Of a stretch of DNA of 40,855 bases, positions 5,961 to 12,171 are shown piece after piece; within the stretch, counting starts at the first letter, position 1, and the number at the start of each line of letters is the position of its first letter. Origin of the DNA: an uncultured Clostridia bacterium (lineage in GTDB: Bacteria > Bacillota > Clostridia > Oscillospirales > Ruminococcaceae); the NCBI GenBank assembly GCA_947627005.1, contig CANQUJ010000016.1, positions 1 through 40,855 of the forward strand. The letters run 5' to 3'. Position numbers and translations under genes: made by a program. The notes under the pieces were generated by a model that was not told the origin of the DNA, searched no databases, and saw only the letters and a list, made by a program, of their open reading frames with translations.

Positions 5961-7985
5961 CTAAATAAGTCCGCGAAGCTTAATAAGCGTTTCGCTCGAA
6001 TCCAGATCCGCCCGCGAGGTCGGGGTCTTCGGGGTGATCCTCCCGGTCTGCCTTGAAAGCCCGATAAGCCCGACGTCGCAAAAAGCGTCCAAAATGATCT
6101 GAAGCTTAAACGCGTTGATCCTTCCGCCGAGGCGGGCGTATAAGCTTTCGTAGGTTATCGGGGTTTTTGAAGAGGTTATGAATTTATAGACCTCGACGAG
6201 CTCGGCCCGCTGCGGGTCGCCCTTTTTAAGAATCTCTTTGTCTATGTCCTCCCGCCTAATAAACGCCTCATAGGCGCTCCTCGCCGCGAAAAAAGGCTCC
6301 TGCTTCGCGCCGTGAAGCCGATAATCCGCGACTCTTAAAGAAACGCTTCTTATCCCTTTATATTCATTCGGGCTCATATTCGCCATAAGGTCGATTTTAT
6401 CCCCCGCCGAAAGCGGAAAATCCGCGGTCTTGACCCTGAACATAATCGCCGAGGCGCGAACGCCGTCGTAGACGAGGTCGAGCTTAGTGTATTCGCCGTT
6501 TTTGATGGGGTGAACCGCCGCAATCTCCGCCCCGGAAATCGCGAACATCGGCTCGGGGTTAAGGCGGCCGAAAGGCTCGATCTTAGAGAGCGAGGCGGCG
6601 TTTTCAAATGTTATGTCGCTTCCGCGCAAAAGCTTGTCCGCCGACAAGGTCATCTTCGGCATAACCGGGACGTTTTCGCGGGCGTATTTTTCTATCGCAT
6701 CTTTAAGAGCGGGGATATTCTCCTCCGAAACGGTAAGCCCGCCGGCAAGCTCGTGCCCGCCGTATTTTATCAGAAGCTCTCGGCAGCTGTCAAAACATGC
6801 GAAGACGTTGAACCCCTCGAACGACCTCGCCGATCCGCACGCGACGCCGTCGTCGCCGATAGAGATTACCAGCGCCGGCTTTTCGTATGCCTCCATAAGC
6901 TTTGCCGCGACTATGCCGATTATACCCCTGTGCCAGTTCTTTCCGGCGACTGTAAGAATCCTGCCGTTTAGCGCGGCCGGGTCTTTGTCTATGATCTCGT
7001 TTATCTCCGAAAACACCGCCGCCTCGACCGTCTTTCTCTTCGAGTTAAGGCGATCGAGCTCTTCGGCGAAGCCCTCGGCCTCCGGTCCGTCCGAAAGAAG
7101 CATATTCAAAGCAATCTGCGGCGAGCCGAACCGGCTTGCGGCGTTAATCCGCGGGACAAGCCCAAAGGCCGCCCCCGAGGCGGTTATATTTTCAAGCGAG
7201 AGGCCGCTTTTTTCGGCCAGCGCGGCCATGCCGAGGTTTTCGGTGTTCTTTAAAAGCCTAAGCCCCCGCGAGACGATTATTCTGTTTTCGCCGATAAGCG
7301 GCATAACGTCGGCGATGGTGGCGACCGCGACAAGGTCGAGATACTGCTCGCAGACCATATCGTAGCTGCCGCCGTCAAGGGCGGCGCAAAGCTTTAAAAC
7401 CACCCCGGCCCCGCAAAGCTCTTTAAACGGAGAGGGGCAGTCTTTTCTGTGCGGGTCGACTATCGCCAACGCCTCGGGCAGAATATCGGTCGGGCGGTGG
7501 TGGTCGGTTATAACAAGCTTAAGGCCGAGCTCTGCGATAAGCTTAGCCTCTTCAATCGCGGTAACGCCGTTGTCGACGGTGATTATAAGCGAAACGCCCA
7601 AGTCGCGCATCTCTTCAACAGCGGCGGTGTTAAGGCCATAGCCCTCGTCCCGCTCGGGAATCTTGCATATAACCTCCGCGCCCATGCTTTCAAGATATCC
7701 CGCCAAAACCGCAGTAGAGGTTATTCCGTCGCAGTCGTAGTCTCCGTATACGCAGATGAGCTCGCCCGAGTCGACGGCTTGATTTATCGCCTCGACGGCG
7801 TTTTGCATATCTGCGAGCAAAAACGGGTCGGAGAGCTCGTCGCCGTTAAAAAATTCGGCGAGGCTTTCAAGGTCTTCATATTTTCTCGCGGCCATAACCT
7901 CGGAAAGAAGCGGCCCGAGGTCTGTTCCGGCGTTTATTCTTTTAACCGCGGCCTCGTCCGGCCGCGAAACTGTCCATCTTTTCAT
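5961..7985 (-). CDS. recJ: Single-stranded-DNA-specific 5'-3' exonuclease RecJ
   Basis: A 674-residue RecJ nuclease of the DHH phosphoesterase superfamily, acting in recombination and repair by resecting single-stranded 5' ends. Motifs in order: DYDCDG at 82-87, DNG at 138-140, DHH at 161-163 and the DHHA1 motif GGHELAGG near residue 403. An OB-type domain follows at about 460-560 and a Firmicutes-style C-terminal extension of about 100 residues closes the protein. The ATG at 7985 has a GGAG site a few bases upstream. It is first in the minus-strand operon recJ-rel-MBL-hemZ-rlmD and has a strong promoter directly upstream. Confidence 0.95.
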   Translation of the reverse strand: MKRWTVSRPDEAAVKRINAGTDLGPLLSEVMAARKYEDLESLAEFFNGDELSDPFLLADMQNAVEAINQAVDSGELICVYGDYDCDGITSTAVLAGYLESMGAEVICKIPERDEGYGLNTAAVEEMRDLGVSLIITVDNGVTAIEEAKLIAELGLKLVITDHHRPTDILPEALAIVDPHRKDCPSPFKELCGAGVVLKLCAALDGGSYDMVCEQYLDLVAVATIADVMPLIGENRIIVSRGLRLLKNTENLGMAALAEKSGLSLENITASGAAFGLVPRINAASRFGSPQIALNMLLSDGPEAEGFAEELDRLNSKRKTVEAAVFSEINEIIDKDPAALNGRILTVAGKNWHRGIIGIVAAKLMEAYEKPALVISIGDDGVACGSARSFEGFNVFACFDSCRELLIKYGGHELAGGLTVSEENIPALKDAIEKYARENVPVMPKMTLSADKLLRGSDITFENAASLSKIEPFGRLNPEPMFAISGAEIAAVHPIKNGEYTKLDLVYDGVRASAIMFRVKTADFPLSAGDKIDLMANMSPNEYKGIRSVSLRVADYRLHGAKQEPFFAARSAYEAFIRREDIDKEILKKGDPQRAELVEVYKFITSSKTPITYESLYARLGGRINAFKLQIILDAFCDVGLIGLSRQTGRITPKTPTSRADLDSSETLIKLRGLI

Positions 7986-8015
7986 ATCGGTCTCCGTAAA
8001 AAACTATATATAGAT

Positions 8016-8044
8016 ATTATAGCAGGTTTTTCGCGGTTTGTAAA
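8016..8044 (-). promoter_or_regulatory. Sigma-A promoter of the recJ operon
   Basis: On the minus strand TTTACA (8044-8039) and a perfect TATAAT (8021-8016) are separated by exactly 17 nt. Transcription would begin near 8009, leaving a short leader of about 25 nt before recJ. No other candidate promoter was seen before the end of rlmD. Confidence 0.85.
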
Positions 8045-8102
8045 GAGAGAAAAACGGACAGATACGGAAGCAAAGAAAACAGAAAGCAGAAATCAGAGGG
8101 CA

Positions 8103-8183
8103 GAAGATAGAGGTTAGAAGATAGAGTGTCGAAATCGCAGAAATTCGCAAAGCCCAACCTCTATCCTCTATCCTCTAACTCTC
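8103..8183. repeat. Purine-rich tract with pyrimidine-rich partner (long imperfect inverted repeat)
   Basis: From about 8041 to 8126 the plus strand is strongly purine-rich, ending in a short direct repeat built on AGAAGATAGAGGTT. About 30 nt later (8157-8183) comes a pyrimidine-rich stretch built on CCTCTATCCTCTA that is roughly its reverse complement, so the two can pair into a long imperfect hairpin. There is no open frame with a ribosome site here. Function unknown. Confidence 0.55.
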
Positions 8184-8195
8184 GATCATCTAAAA

Positions 8196-8366
8196 GTTTT
8201 CGATCCAACCTTTTTCAAAAGGTTGGCGAGGTCGAGGGCGAGAAGCCCTCGTCGCGCTCCGCAGAGCGCGAAATCCCCTTACTAAAAATAGCGCAGGAAG
8301 GGGAGCGAAAATCTGTCCTGTGGACAGTTTTCGCGTGGGGGAACCCTCGCCGGGGGTTCCCCCGAA
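8196..8366 (+). repeat. Five-hairpin repeat element, copy 1
   Basis: Five stem-loops in a row. H1 at 8205-8226 has arms CCAACCTTTT and AAAAGGTTGG. H2 at 8233-8251 has arms CGAGGGC and GCCCTCG. H3 at 8252-8271 has arms TCGCGCTC and GAGCGCGA with loop CGCA. H4 at 8305-8334 has a 7+6 bp stem with one bulged T. H5 at 8337-8363 has arms GGGGGAACCC and GGGTTCCCCC with a 7-nt loop. The same order, loops and spacing recur in two more copies at 10084-10346 and, inverted, at 10463-10640. Stem sequences differ between copies but pairing is kept. Open frames crossing this element are not credible genes. Confidence 0.85.
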
Positions 8367-8368
8367 AA

Positions 8369-8520
8369 TCGCGGCTGCGAGAGCAGTCGCGCACCTCAAC
8401 GTCGGGCTCTCGCCTCTTTAACCCGCAGCTCCGGCAGGAGCTGCGCACCTAAACGTCGGGTTTGCGTCTCTTTTATCCGCAGCTCCGGCAGGAGCTGCGC
8501 GCCTCAAAGTCGGCCCATCT
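8369..8520 (+). repeat. Three tandem hairpin units with 54-nt period
   Basis: Directly after copy 1 of the five-hairpin repeat, three units follow with a period of 54 nt. Each holds a hairpin (8371-8390, then arms GCAGCTCC and GGAGCTGC around loop GGCA in units two and three) followed by GCRCCTMAAMGTCGG. The same unit occurs after copy 2 (10356-10391), with an identical 20-nt hairpin. The units are contiguous, with no unique spacers, so this is not a CRISPR array. Confidence 0.8.
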
Positions 8521-8524
8521 TTGC

Positions 8525-8552
8525 AAAAAAGACCGCCCCTCTCGGAGCGGCC
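8525..8552 (-). terminator. Rho-independent terminator after the SPFH gene
   Basis: On the minus strand a GC-rich hairpin at 8552-8531 (arms GGCCGCTCC and GGGGCGGTC, pairing with a G-T wobble) is followed immediately by six T residues. It begins 28 nt after the SPFH stop and should end the NfeD-SPFH transcript. Confidence 0.85.
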
Positions 8553-8580
8553 TTTATAACAGCTTTGAACCTCAAACTCG

Positions 8581-9534
8581 TTATTCCTTCGATATGATCT
8601 CTTTAAGCCCTGCGGCGAGGCCGGCAAAGCCCTGAATCTCGCTCGGAATGATGATCTTGGTGGATTTGCCGTCGGCGGCCTTTGCAAAGGCCTCGAGGCT
8701 TTTAAGCGCAAGAACCTGCTGGTTCGGGTTGGCTTCGTTGAGCTTTTTAAGGCTCTCTGCGAGAGCAGACTGAACCGCGTCGATGGCCTCCGCCTCGCCC
8801 TGCGCTTCAAGAATCTTCTGCTCTTTAACGGCGCTCGCGCGAAGAACGGTTGCCTCGCGCTCGGCCTCGGCCTTAAGGATCTCGGCCTGCTTGTCGGCCT
8901 CCGCCTTAAGGATCTTCGACTGCTTTTCGCCCTCGGCGACGAGTATCTGCGACTTCTTGTCGCCCTCGGCCTGAAGGATCTTCTCGCGGCGTTCGCGCTC
9001 GGCCTTCATCTGCTTCTCCATCGCGTCCTGAATCTCACGCGGGGGGATGATGTTTTTAAGCTCGACGCGGTTGACTTTGATCCCCCAGCGGTCGGTCGCC
9101 TCGTCGAGAATTATGGTTATCTTTTCGTTGATGGTATCGCGCGAGGTCAAGGTCGCGTCGAGCTCGAGCTCGCCGATGATGTTTCTTAAAGTGGTCGCGG
9201 TAAGGTTTTCAATCGCGGCTATCGGGCGCTCTACGCCGTAGGTATAAAGCTTGGCGTCGGTGATCTGGAAGAACACTACGGTGTCGATCTGCATCGTAAC
9301 GTTATCCTTGGTGATGACCGGCTGGGGCTTAAAGTCCGCGACCTGCTCTTTGATCGACACCTTTTTCGCGATCTTGTCGATAAACGGGAAGAGCATATGC
9401 GGGCCGGTGTGAAGCTCGCGGTTAAAGGCGCCGAGGCGCTCTACCACATAAACCTGCGCCTGCGGAACGATCTTGAAGTTTGCGATAACTACCGCAAGAA
9501 GAATTAGAACTATGACTGAAATGATTACCGGCAT
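8581..9534 (-). CDS. SPFH/Band 7 domain protein (stomatin/QmcA-like)
   Basis: A 317-residue membrane-anchored scaffold protein of the SPFH (stomatin/prohibitin/flotillin) superfamily. Residues 1-20 form an N-terminal transmembrane anchor, then the Band 7 domain runs from about 22 to 180 (QAQVYVVERLGAF, GIKVNRVELKNIIPP). A charged coiled coil follows at about 170-260 and contains 11-residue repeats of the form KQSKILKAEAD. A short amphipathic C-terminus (AGLAAGLKEIISKE) ends it. Family members form membrane oligomers and are linked to lipid microdomains or protease control. It lies 21 nt downstream of an NfeD gene, the usual partner, and AGGAGG precedes ATG 9534. The precise role is unknown. 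Confidence 0.93.
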   Translation of the reverse strand: MPVIISVIVLILLAVVIANFKIVPQAQVYVVERLGAFNRELHTGPHMLFPFIDKIAKKVSIKEQVADFKPQPVITKDNVTMQIDTVVFFQITDAKLYTYGVERPIAAIENLTATTLRNIIGELELDATLTSRDTINEKITIILDEATDRWGIKVNRVELKNIIPPREIQDAMEKQMKAERERREKILQAEGDKKSQILVAEGEKQSKILKAEADKQAEILKAEAEREATVLRASAVKEQKILEAQGEAEAIDAVQSALAESLKKLNEANPNQQVLALKSLEAFAKAADGKSTKIIIPSEIQGFAGLAAGLKEIISKE

Positions 9535-9555
9535 AATGTATAACCTCCTAAATAT

Positions 9556-9993
9556 TTAATCTCGGCGCTTGGCGACTATAAGCTTTGCGCCGTCGATTTC
9601 TTTGACTACCACCGTCTCTCCGGCGGGGATCTCCGCCCCGTCTTCGCTGACGGCCTTCCACGAAACTCCGCCGATCGTGGCCCTGCCCTTTGAAAATTCG
9701 TTTTTGATCTCTTCGGTGACTATTGCGGTCCTGCCGATATTAAGGTCGGCGTTGGTTCTGACGAATCCGCCGCGAAGCCTTTTGACTATCGGTCGGGTGA
9801 GGATCAAAAGGATTGCGGAAACCGCGATGAACACCGAAAGCTGCGCCCAGCGCGGCGCGCCCAAGCCCGCCAGAATAAGCGAAACGAGCGACCCGCAAGC
9901 GAACCAGATCGAGACGAACTGAACGGTTATGACTTCGATCACAATGCCGGCTATAAGGACGAATCCCCAAGCGACGGCCATCAGTATGTCCAT
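9556..9993 (-). CDS. NfeD family membrane protein
   Basis: A 145-residue short NfeD protein. It has two to three hydrophobic segments in residues 1-70 (ending near LLILTRPIVKRL) and a C-terminal OB-fold domain (NIGRTAIVTEEI to AKLIVAKRRD). NfeD proteins pair with SPFH proteins, as here with the next gene, and are thought to help assemble them in the membrane. A GTG at 10002 is possible, but GGAGGT at 10006-10001 overlaps it and sits 7-8 nt before ATG 9993, and the predicted transcription start is near 10008, so ATG 9993 is preferred. Confidence 0.9.
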   Translation of the reverse strand: MDILMAVAWGFVLIAGIVIEVITVQFVSIWFACGSLVSLILAGLGAPRWAQLSVFIAVSAILLILTRPIVKRLRGGFVRTNADLNIGRTAIVTEEIKNEFSKGRATIGGVSWKAVSEDGAEIPAGETVVVKEIDGAKLIVAKRRD

Positions 9994-10014
9994 ACAAAAC
10001 ACCTCCGTAAAGGC

Positions 10015-10043
10015 ATTATAGCATATTTAATGTAATTTGTAAA
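10015..10043 (-). promoter_or_regulatory. Sigma-A promoter of the NfeD-SPFH operon
   Basis: On the minus strand TTTACA (10043-10038) and TATAAT (10020-10015) are 17 nt apart. The predicted start near 10008 gives a very short leader containing the GGAGGT ribosome site for ATG 9993. Confidence 0.85.
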
Positions 10044-10083
10044 TAGGGAAAAATTAGCGGGGAGCGATTTTAGCAAAACCGAA

Positions 10084-10346
10084 AGTTTTCGGTCAAGCCT
10101 TTTTCAAAAGGCTTGCGGGGGTCGAGGGGGCAGCGCCCCCTTGTCGCAGCCCGCAGGCTGCGAAAGCCCGAAACGAAGGCGCCCTGCAAGGGGTGCAATG
10201 CAAGCCGGTTTTGTAGCCAATCGGACTTCGCGGGCATATATGCCCGCCCTGCTCGTCCTCTTGGACAAAACCGGCGTGCATGTTTCAAAAACAGTCCGGC
10301 GGACTGTTTTTGGAAGAGGGGACGCTCTGCAAGAGAGAGCGTCCCC
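10084..10346 (+). repeat. Five-hairpin repeat element, copy 2, with an extra cruciform
   Basis: Same order of stems as copy 1. H1 is at 10094-10115 (arms CAAGCCTTTT and AAAAGGCTTG). H2 is at 10126-10140 (GGGGGC and GCCCCC). H3 is at 10144-10163 (TCGCAGCC and GGCTGCGA, loop CGCA). H4 is at 10286-10312 (a perfect 12-bp stem). H5 is at 10318-10346 (GGGGACGCTCT and AGAGCGTCCCC, 7-nt loop). Between H3 and H4 this copy has 122 nt where copies 1 and 3 have 33, including the large inverted repeat at 10198-10281. Confidence 0.85.
10198..10281. repeat. Long inverted repeat with an inner 18-bp palindrome
   Basis: The outer arms 10198-10214 and 10265-10281 pair at 16 of 17 positions (core GCCGGTTTTGT with ACAAAACCGGC). 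Inside lies a perfect 18-bp palindrome at 10230-10247 (GCGGGCATATATGCCCGC). It sits between H3 and H4 of copy 2 and looks like an insertion relative to the other two copies. Confidence 0.8.
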
Positions 10347-10350
10347 TTTT

Positions 10351-10435
10351 AATTCGCGGCTGCGAGAGCAGTCGCGCACCATAACGTCGGGTTTTTCGCT
10401 TTAATCCCCGGCTCCGACAGGAGCTGCAAGCCTTA
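10351..10435 (+). repeat. Hairpin units related to the 54-nt tandem repeat
   Basis: The hairpin at 10356-10375 is identical over 20 nt to 8371-8390 and is followed by GCGCACC and then ACGTCGGG. A second, degraded unit follows (CCGGCTCCGACAGGAGCTGC, 10408-10427). As at copy 1, these units follow H5 directly, so they appear to be part of the same composite repeat. Confidence 0.75.
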
Positions 10436-10462
10436 AAATTTTCTCGCTTGCGCTCGAAAATC

Positions 10463-10640
10463 GGGGAGACCCCCGACGAGGGTCTCCCCACACGAAAACA
10501 ATTCACCGGATTGTTTTCGCTCCCCGTCCTGCGTTTCGCTTCGCAAGAGTTTTCGCGCTCTGCGGAGCGCGACCAAAGGGCGCCGCCCTTTGGATTTCCG
10601 CAAGCCTTTTGGAAAAGGCTTGACCGAAAACTTTTAGCTA
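10463..10640 (-). repeat. Five-hairpin repeat element, copy 3, inverted
   Basis: Read on the minus strand from about 10640 to 10463, the stems are H1 (10622-10601), H2 (10593-10573), H3 (10572-10553, arms TCGCGCTC and GAGCGCGA, loop CGCA), H4 (10519-10493, arms CGAAAACAAT and ATTGTTTTCG) and H5 (10489-10463, arms GGGGAGACCC and GGGTCTCCCC, 7-nt loop). The H3-H4 gap is 33 nt, as in copy 1. It lies about 25 nt downstream of the GH26 stop in sense orientation, and no ordinary T-tailed terminator was seen after that gene. Confidence 0.85.
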
Positions 10641-10665
10641 AAGCGCCCTTAACAACCTCGCGCCC

Positions 10666-12171
10666 CTATTCGAGCGGATATTTTCTCAAATTCGGCAGCT
10701 CGTCGAGCGTGAGCGTGTATTCGCTCTCGTAGGCCTTCTTGAGTATATATTTTTCGGTGTAAAATTCGGTGTAGCCGCCGCTCTCGCCTACGCAAAACTC
10801 GCCGCTCCACGTCCCCCAAAGCAGCCACCTCGCGTTGTCGTTATAAACCATATCCGGGTCCATAACGCAGCCGTTTTCCGAAAGCGCAATAAGCTTGTTT
10901 TCGCCCGAACACTCGGCGCACTTCTCGAAAGTCGACGAATAGCTTCCGTATTCATGCTGACCGGGGTAGATATCCCAGCCCACAATGTCGACCACGTCGT
11001 CGCCGGGGTACCAGTCCGCGTCCTGGCCGTTCCAAAGCCAGATAAGGTTGGTCAGCCCGTGCTCGTTGGTGAGCTTGTCGTACATCGTTCTCCAAAGCGC
11101 TTTATAAGCCTCCGGGCCGCTCTCGCCCCACCAGAACCAGCCGCCCGAGCCTTCATGAAGCGGCCGCCACAAGACCGGCACGCCGTCCTCCTGAAGCCGC
11201 TTAAGCTGCTCTGCGATCGCGTCTATGTCCTTCATAAGCTTCTCGTAGCCCTCTTCGTCCTCGCCGTTCATTATCGCCGCAAGGTCCATCGTGACCGCGT
11301 CGGAGCTGTAACCTTCCCACCACATTCTTCCGTAGTCGATAAACGATTTCGGCGCGATCCAGTGCCAGCAGAACTGCACGATTCCGCCGGCGTTGTAATA
11401 CCAGTCATGGGCGTATTCGACCGCGTTAGAGGTCGTTCCCATCTCGACCGAAAGCGGGGTATAGCCGGTCATATCCAGCCCGAGTACCGCAAAACTCTCG
11501 CCGGTCTCGGTCATAATCGCGTTGTATTCGTTCGATTCGCGGCCCTTTTCGGCGTATTGCCCCGAAAGGGTGTATTTTCCGTAGATATCGCAGAGGAATT
11601 TATAGAGCATCTTCGTGTGCTCGTCGGCGTTCGGGTTAGAGAGCCCCGCCGTGACGTTGTAGACGTTTTTATAGTCGAACTCCGTCGGCGAGACGGTGAG
11701 CGTTCCGAAGTCTACCCAGCCCCAGTTCGGGGTGAGTTTTATGCTGTTCTCGCCCTTGTTCAGTCTGACGAATTTCGCGACTCCGTCCTCCGGGGTGATG
11801 TCCGCAATCTTAAAGCCGTTGACTGCGACGTAGTTGACTCTGTTTCCGTCGCCTTTCTGCTCGAACGAGAGGTCATAGAACCCCTCTTCGGGGATCTCGA
11901 CCTTATAGGTTATCGAGTCGCCCTCGGCGTTCATGCCGGTTATCATGCTCCCCGAAAGCCTCGCCCCGCCGGCCAAAACCGCCTCGCTCGCGGGGATTTC
12001 AACAGTCTCGCCGCCGCCTTTGGCTTCGTTGAGCGAAAGCGCGGGGATTGAAAGATCGTTAAAGCTCTTTCTCACGTCGCCGTACTTCGCCTTGATGGTG
12101 GTGTTCTCGCAGCCGGTCAAAACCAGAATCGCCGCGAGTATCGCCGTAAAAATTTTAAAACTTTTTTTCAT
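10666..12171 (-). CDS. Lipoprotein beta-mannanase-like GH26 glycoside hydrolase with N-terminal CBM
   Basis: A 501-residue secreted lipoprotein with signal peptide and lipobox LTGC (C21). Residues about 55-160 form a beta-sandwich resembling CBM35-type carbohydrate-binding modules (IPASEAVLAGGARLSG, GWVDFGTLTV). A GH26 catalytic domain spans about 180-490. The acid/base glutamate is E340 in WRPLHEGSGGWFWWG and the nucleophile E432 in ALSENG, both in the expected GH26 contexts. GH26 enzymes are mostly endo-beta-1,4-mannanases; other specificities exist. ATG 12171 has GGAGG upstream. It follows dnaE by 30 nt with no promoter seen in the gap, so it is probably the last gene of the long murD operon. 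It suggests that the cell degrades plant mannan at its surface. Confidence 0.92.
   Translation of the reverse strand: MKKSFKIFTAILAAILVLTGCENTTIKAKYGDVRKSFNDLSIPALSLNEAKGGGETVEIPASEAVLAGGARLSGSMITGMNAEGDSITYKVEIPEEGFYDLSFEQKGDGNRVNYVAVNGFKIADITPEDGVAKFVRLNKGENSIKLTPNWGWVDFGTLTVSPTEFDYKNVYNVTAGLSNPNADEHTKMLYKFLCDIYGKYTLSGQYAEKGRESNEYNAIMTETGESFAVLGLDMTGYTPLSVEMGTTSNAVEYAHDWYYNAGGIVQFCWHWIAPKSFIDYGRMWWEGYSSDAVTMDLAAIMNGEDEEGYEKLMKDIDAIAEQLKRLQEDGVPVLWRPLHEGSGGWFWWGESGPEAYKALWRTMYDKLTNEHGLTNLIWLWNGQDADWYPGDDVVDIVGWDIYPGQHEYGSYSSTFEKCAECSGENKLIALSENGCVMDPDMVYNDNARWLLWGTWSGEFCVGESGGYTEFYTEKYILKKAYESEYTLTLDELPNLRKYPLE

What the first reader, a model, noticed from the sequence alone, without database searches (positions are those of the whole stretch)
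8196..10640. Five-hairpin repeat in three copies with compensatory base changes
Three copies (8196-8366 plus, 10084-10346 plus, 10640-10463 minus) keep the same stem order H1-H5. H3 loop CGCA is kept while its stem changes from TCGCGCTC/GAGCGCGA to TCGCAGCC/GGCTGCGA. H5 changes from GGGGGAACCC/GGGTTCCCCC to GGGGAGACCC/GGGTCTCCCC to GGGGACGCTCT/AGAGCGTCCCC, always with a 7-nt loop. The H3-H4 gap is 33 nt in copies 1 and 3. Paired changes imply that the folded form, as RNA or cruciform DNA, is under selection. They flank the NfeD-SPFH operon. They may be a REP/MITE-like mobile repeat family or a structured RNA; I do not know a published name.
Basis: partly seen in the sequence, partly recalled or inferred. 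Interest (0 to 1): 0.72.

Follow-up and report, generated by a model that had tools for sequence, protein, structure and literature searches.

The report
Mosaic palindromic hairpin repeats between genes
The hairpin clusters around this operon are three of about 45 copies of a non-coding, patchwork repeat that sits between the genes of this bacterium and its relatives, most likely as mobile DNA rather than as an RNA, and one of its hairpins also occurs in a methane-producing archaeon.

Summary
The three copies belong to a family with 54 covariance-model matches in this 2.07-Mb genome (44 at E<=1e-16); the model also hits 57 of 295 sampled genomes of the order. Stems covary: 98.5% of cells paired, 15 of 25 pairs changed on both sides, covariation score reached by 0/500 shuffles. 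In H1-H3 of 131 arms, 2,891 pairs are Watson-Crick, 7 G.T and 6 A.C: no wobble excess. Direction ignores gene direction. So the folded form is probably DNA. All 32 element places examined are intergenic. The RecJ-SPFH gap lacks the insertion in all 3 relatives syntenic there. Hairpin modules reassort almost freely. In 10 of 10 composites a B arm faces an A/C arm. Copy 2 carries a nested 84-bp element, hence its longer gap. I file it as a REP/BIME/MITE-like mosaic with no identified mobiliser. Y1 transposase is associated with carriers (7/14 vs 1/17, p=0.011) but absent from half of them; IS110 and reverse transcriptase do not fit. The exact H1 hairpin was found only in Clostridia-type and Methanosarcina records.

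The parts
8190..8530 (+). Element 1: single A1-type arm plus three 54-nt H6 units, ending at CATCTTTGC next to a terminator-like hairpin of SPFH
8193..8205 (+). Terminal tag AAAGTTTTCGATC of arm 1 (its last C is also the first base of H1)
8205..8226 (+). H1 of arm 1 (CCAACC type)
8233..8251 (+). H2 of arm 1
8252..8271 (+). H3 of arm 1, loop CGCA
8274..8304 (+). Further predicted hairpin in the 'gap' between H3 and H4
8305..8334 (+). H4 of arm 1
8337..8363 (+). H5 of arm 1
8370..8530 (+). Three 54-nt H6 hairpin units
10082..10637 (+). Element 2: composite, B arm + H6 units + inverted A2 arm
10082..10350 (+). B-type arm (with the nested 84-bp element inside)
10199..10282 (+). Nested separate 84-bp inverted-repeat element, skipped in other copies of the arm
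10351..10460 (+). Centre of the composite: H6-type units
10461..10637 (-). A2-type arm, inverted (copy 3)

Best explanation
The feature is a family of mosaic palindromic interspersed DNA repeats that works like REP/BIME or MITE repeats. An arm is a 5' tag (usually AAAGTTTTCGNTC) followed by five or six short hairpins. A composite element is a B arm, one or more H6 units and an inverted A- or C-type arm; single arms with H6 units also occur. It carries no recognised gene, sits between genes, and is presumably moved in trans by a cell enzyme that reads the tag, the loops and the hairpin shape in single-stranded or cruciform DNA, not the stem sequence. That would leave stems free to change as long as they stay paired. 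Copies then exchange hairpins with one another. Shown: copy number, architecture, intergenic position, a site that is empty in relatives, covariation, no wobble excess in H1-H3, module reassortment. Inferred: mobility by an enzyme in trans, DNA-structure recognition, the exchange mechanism.
For: 54 model matches in the own genome; 32 of 32 places examined intergenic; RecJ-SPFH gap without the element in G022, G003 and G005, the 3 relatives syntenic there; covariation score 0/500 and slid controls 29-55% paired; G.T 7 vs A.C 6 among 2,913 pairs of H1-H3; oriented loops, CGCA 91 vs TGCG 1 and TC 79 vs GA 0; no gene-direction preference; modules H1, H2, H3 and downstream without detectable association, 33 combinations in 43 arms; solo palindromes at G000:C2:115493 and in L212; no predicted gene between facing arms in G066, and 4 long frames tested there have no Pfam match.
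Against: No mobilising enzyme was found and no clean target-site duplication was seen. The empty site could in principle be a deletion, and it is one site. Hairpins downstream of H3 show a mild G.T excess (38 vs 19, p = 0.016), which leaves room for an RNA-level effect. On the fitted alignment H2 shows 56 G.T against 17 other mismatches; I read this as misregister, because the local recount gives 5, but it speaks against me as it stands. There are no expression or transposition data.
Confidence: 0.73

Rival explanations
1. A structured non-coding RNA or cis-acting RNA leader/terminator, selected as RNA.
For: Strong covariation and stable RNA folds; mild G.T excess in downstream hairpins and in H2 of the fitted alignment; H5 of B arms is followed by short T runs.
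Against: No wobble excess in H1-H3 on local recount; no preference for gene 5' or 3' sides; no Rfam match at gathering score and only weak ones at E 0.1-1; terminator scan of 7900-10800 finds 3 sites versus 5.2 expected.
Confidence: 0.12
2. REPIN/RAYT-like system moved by a Y1 transposase, which has since been lost from some carriers.
For: Tag plus hairpin and inverted doublets resemble REPINs; one Y1 gene in the own genome; within the genus Y1 matches occur in 7 of 14 carriers and 1 of 17 non-carriers, p = 0.011, though carriers look like one lineage, so shared ancestry may explain it.
Against: 7 of 14 genus carriers have no Y1 match at all, and full-length ones are in only 3 of 14; G058, with 14 model matches, has none; no arm was found in the 3.4-kb locus around the own Y1 gene, only an 84-bp element.
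Confidence: 0.1
3. Passive palindromes: no recognition at all. Perfect stems are kept only by DNA-polymerase template switching between arms, and copies spread by recombination.
For: Near-perfect Watson-Crick stems with few intermediates; template switching homogenises inverted-repeat arms (abstract of PMC8604942).
Against: By the same abstract that mechanism also inverts spacers, but loops are almost never inverted (CGCA 91 vs TGCG 1; TC 79 vs GA 0). It also does not explain the conserved tag or the insertion into the RecJ-SPFH gap.
Confidence: 0.1

Closest known systems
REP/BIME (bacterial interspersed mosaic elements)
   Same: Intergenic, multi-copy, palindromic units in mosaic and alternating orientation (abstract start of PMC2817692, listing only).
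   Different: Longer arms with five or six hairpins; tag usually AAAGTTTTCGNTC instead of GTAG or CGTC (title of PMC3733652); hairpin-by-hairpin reassortment.
REPIN/RAYT
   Same: Two inverted tagged hairpins as the minimal unit (solo palindromes); partial association with Y1.
   Different: Half of the genus carriers have no Y1 match.
MITE
   Same: Short element without recognised gene, with inverted ends and an orthologous site that is empty in relatives.
   Different: No parent transposon found, no clear target duplication; in the window composite the first 84 nt of the two arms are only 80% complementary to each other, less than the local stems.

Membership tests
REP/BIME | Intergenic multi-copy palindromes in mosaic clusters | tested here: met
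   32/32 places examined intergenic, 54 model matches, modules mixed
REP/BIME | GTAG or CGTC tag at one end of the palindrome | tested here: not met
   Tag is AAAGTTTTCGNTC or a close variant in the arms read
REPIN/RAYT | Y1 (RAYT) gene in the carrier genome | tested here: inconclusive
   Present in 7 of 14 genus carriers against 1 of 17 non-carriers (p = 0.011), absent in the other 7 carriers, two of which are under 90% complete
REPIN/RAYT | Repeat next to the Y1 gene | tested here: not met
   No arm in the 3.4-kb locus around the only own Y1 gene
MITE | Terminal inverted repeats, no gene | tested here: met
   in G066
MITE | Target-site duplication | tested here: inconclusive
   None consistent by eye in the flanks of 30 elements
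MITE | Shares ends with an autonomous transposon | not tested
   Only Y1, IS110 and reverse transcriptase were sought
Structured ncRNA | Excess of wobble pairs over A.C in covarying stems | tested here: inconclusive
   No excess in H1-H3 (7 vs 6); excess in downstream hairpins (38 vs 19) and in H2 of the fitted alignment
Structured ncRNA | Match to a described Rfam family | tested here: not met
   0 at gathering score; four weak hits at E 0.11-0.99, all far below gathering score
Structured ncRNA | Transcription as a discrete RNA | not testable with these tools
   No RNA-seq

The most novel reading that the evidence does not exclude
A transposase-orphan DNA hairpin system in which a conserved tag and oriented loops are read while stems are interchangeable cassettes, copies swap single hairpins at near linkage equilibrium, and the same tag-hairpin module operates in a bacterium and an archaeon after transfer between domains.
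Probability: 0.2. Interest if true: 0.75.

Novelty: new variant of a known kind. Interest (0 to 1): 0.52.

Why it matters
Covariation is often taken as a sign of a functional RNA. This family shows strong covariation that is probably DNA-level, and the G.T versus A.C count is a cheap test to tell the two apart. The family is widespread in its order (57 of 295 sampled genomes) and has no Rfam match. Hairpin-level reassortment, and an exact hairpin shared with Methanosarcina, raise testable questions about how such palindromes move.

Tried and rejected
IS110 as mobiliser: the own genome's one match (29.8 bits, cut-off 29) lies in a 1,426-aa frame, and 20 other genus members have weaker matches in frames of 1,305-1,483 aa, so I take it for an unrelated long protein. 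Reverse transcriptase: 0 in the own genome. Y1: I first meant to reject it by distribution, but on recount it is associated with carriers (7/14 vs 1/17, p = 0.011); it is now kept as a rival, its odds raised from 0.05 to 0.1 and those of the best explanation lowered from 0.75 to 0.73. Phage or plasmid origin: 0 exact tag+H1 matches in viral contigs, and blastn with 8190-8530 found no match in the phage and plasmid collections. Terminators: 3 found, 5.2 expected. Target duplications: none consistent by eye. Autonomous parent: facing arms up to about 960 bp apart in G066 enclose no gene predicted by my script, which was trained on the window; frames up to 113 codons exist, and the 4 of them that I searched in Pfam gave nothing. 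Avoidance of equal modules in facing arms looked striking (0/10 for the downstream module, 4.1 expected), but each of the 10 composites is simply B plus A/C, so I do not claim avoidance; for H2 (0/10, 1.95 expected) and H3 (3/10, 5.2 expected) the shortfall is weak, and H1 is as expected (4/10, 3.8). The one search set was selected for hairpins and was not used for counting. A1 holds 41 own arms (of 44 strong model matches) and 19 from relatives. Left out: L033:2076 (insert in place of H2), L023 (no clear tag), the second L012 arm, truncated tags, L045 and L052, and two own arms fetched only later (L198, L199). Papers: searches showed no description of this family in their listings, which cover open-licence papers only. 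I saw listings with abstract starts, find-passages of PMC3733652, PMC4666352 and PMC3116915, and outline with abstract of PMC8604942 and PMC1525189.
Full report
Check of the observation. The three hairpin clusters are present. Copies 2 and 3 are the facing arms of one 556-bp element (10082-10637). Copy 1 is a single arm followed by three 54-nt hairpin units (8190-8530). Single-strand folds are far more stable than dinucleotide shuffles (0 of 200 shuffles as stable in each). Copy 2's longer H3-H4 distance comes from an 84-bp inverted-repeat element at 10199-10282 that most other copies of the arm lack and that occurs elsewhere in the genome. The neighbours are RecJ-like (5961-7985), SPFH (8581-9534), NfeD (9556-10002) and a GH26 protein (10666-12171).

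Copy number and spread. Blastn with arm 1 lists 60 matches in the own genome. A covariance model of tag+H1-H3 (R1) gives 54 matches at E<=0.1, 44 of them at E<=1e-16; the weakest overlap others or are fragments. In 60 relatives, 15 including the own genome match by blastn: 14 of the 31 genus members including the own one, plus one weak match outside. R1 matches 57 of 295 sampled genomes of the order, in 38 of 148 genera; that call used stricter filters, so this is probably a lower bound. Viral contigs: 0 by exact pattern; phages and plasmids: 0 by blastn.

Position. All 32 element places in the own genome that I fetched from the list and read lie between predicted genes; gene prediction was my own codon-usage script. 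Neighbour orientations are -- 14, -+ 9, +- 4, ++ 3, with 2 places lacking a gene on one side; the tally printed is one higher for -+ because it includes the 84-bp element in L108. For 21 single-arm elements the H1 side faces a gene 5' end 10 times and a 3' end 11 times; the other side is 10 and 10. RecJ and SPFH are adjacent in G022, G003 and G005 with 141, 138 and 166 bp between the blast matches, against 595 bp in the window, and no arm in that gap. The extra stretch in the window lies between the region upstream of RecJ and the SPFH terminator-like hairpin. Insertion in the own lineage is the simplest reading, but deletion is not excluded.

Structure. On an alignment of 60 arms (41 own, 19 from relatives; chosen by sequence similarity, not by folding), the structure H1-H3 has 98.5% of cells paired against 86.2% in shuffles, 15 of 25 pairs with two-sided change, and covariation score 0.392 against 0.172. 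None of 500 shuffles reaches the paired percentage, the two-sided counts or the covariation score; 21 of 500 reach the number of further pair types. Sliding partners by 1-3 columns drops pairing to 29-55%. RNAalifold predicts nearly the same pairs. The arms are related, so the shuffles overstate the evidence.

RNA or DNA. If RNA were selected, G.U intermediates should outnumber A.C mismatches. With a hairpin finder that treats all mismatches alike, 131 distinct arms (hairpin found in 125, 118 and 97 of them for H1, H2 and H3) give 2,891 Watson-Crick, 7 G.T, 6 A.C and 9 other pairs; hairpins further downstream give 3,111, 38, 19 and 27 (p = 1.0 and 0.016). The finder trims ragged ends, which lowers both mismatch classes. 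On the alignment fitted to the model, G.T versus all other mismatches is 4 vs 7 in H1, 5 vs 21 in H3 and 56 vs 17 in H2; I read the H2 figure as misregister of stems of different length. So H1 and H3 show no wobble tolerance, H2 shows none on local recount, and the downstream part shows a mild excess. That structured RNAs carry several percent G.U is recalled, not tested here. Loops are oriented: CGCA 91 versus inverted TGCG 1 for H3, TC 79 versus GA 0 for H1. Outside that set, searches list a few copies with loop GA, at least two of them solo palindromes, which read both ways.

Mosaic. Classing 43 own arms by tag, H1, H2, H3 and downstream type gives 33 distinct combinations of the last four. 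Tag and H1 are linked (0 of 5,000 permutations as high); tag with H2 and with H3 is borderline (p 0.07 each); H1, H2, H3 and downstream type show no association (p 0.12-0.99). With 43 arms the power is modest. In the 10 composites compared, one arm is B and the other A1, A2 or C; L033, whose second arm is interrupted, was left out. A minimal form is a bare H1 palindrome (G000:C2:115493-115551; L212). In G066, of another genus of the same family, there are 72 exact H1 copies and facing arms up to about 960 bp apart with no predicted gene between them; some of these look like two elements side by side.

Cross-domain sharing. An exact 35-nt pattern for tag+H1 hit 51 stretches in genome contigs: 18 in records titled Clostridia, Neglecta, Ruminococcaceae, Ruminococcus or Oscillospiraceae, and 33 in Methanosarcina (31 of MSH10X1, one M. 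spelaei, one UBA11020). That tool may leave out the own genome and near ones. A shortened pattern gives 49 copies in MSH10X1, 3 in M. spelaei and 1 in UBA11020, with 0 for the reversed control, and occurs in 2 of 398 sampled genomes of the own phylum, the own one and G066. In Methanosarcina the hairpin often sits in arrays with about 110-bp spacing, and in the stretches read it is not followed by H2 and H3. By my estimate this is far beyond chance; transfer or convergence is undecided.

Mobiliser. Y1 matches occur in 7 of 14 genus carriers and 1 of 17 non-carriers (p = 0.011); 7 carriers have none, and only 3 carriers have a full-length one. This is compatible with a lost Y1 partner or with shared ancestry of the carriers. 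IS110 has no convincing match in the own genome and reverse transcriptase none. The enzyme remains unknown, and mobility in trans is inference by analogy to REPINs, whose authors propose RAYTs (passages of PMC3116915).

Verdict. I read it as a DNA-level mosaic palindromic repeat family, a new variant of the REP/BIME/MITE kind. No description of it appeared in the listings.

Noticed in passing
window 10199-10282; also L029, L037, L108, L200-L205, L142, L144: Second repeat family: 84-bp element with a conserved core (about CGGGCATATATGCCCG) inside outer stems that differ but stay paired; some copies sit inside arms (window, L029, L037, L142, L144).
   Followed up: partly
window 8070-8180; L020, L025, L029, L030, L035: Purine-rich degenerate repeats (CAGAAAT/ATAGAGG type), in the window with a facing pyrimidine-rich arm, often flank the elements; in L020 on both sides.
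   Followed up: no
L057-L061 and the other Methanosarcina loci: The exact tag+H1 hairpin of the clostridial family occurs, often in tandem arrays, in Methanosarcina; no other group turned up in that scan.
   Followed up: partly
L108 about 2020-2280, L096, L099, L140: Third hairpin repeat with AAAAGGTAT ... ATACTAT ends and CACCCCACCCC blocks, also with differing but paired stems; in L108 it adjoins the only Y1 transposase gene of the genome.
   Followed up: no
window 10096-10067 -; L206-L223: Element ends carry an outward TTGACC (window) or TTGACA (G066) that could serve as a -35 box; 10/12 promoter match in the window.
   Followed up: no
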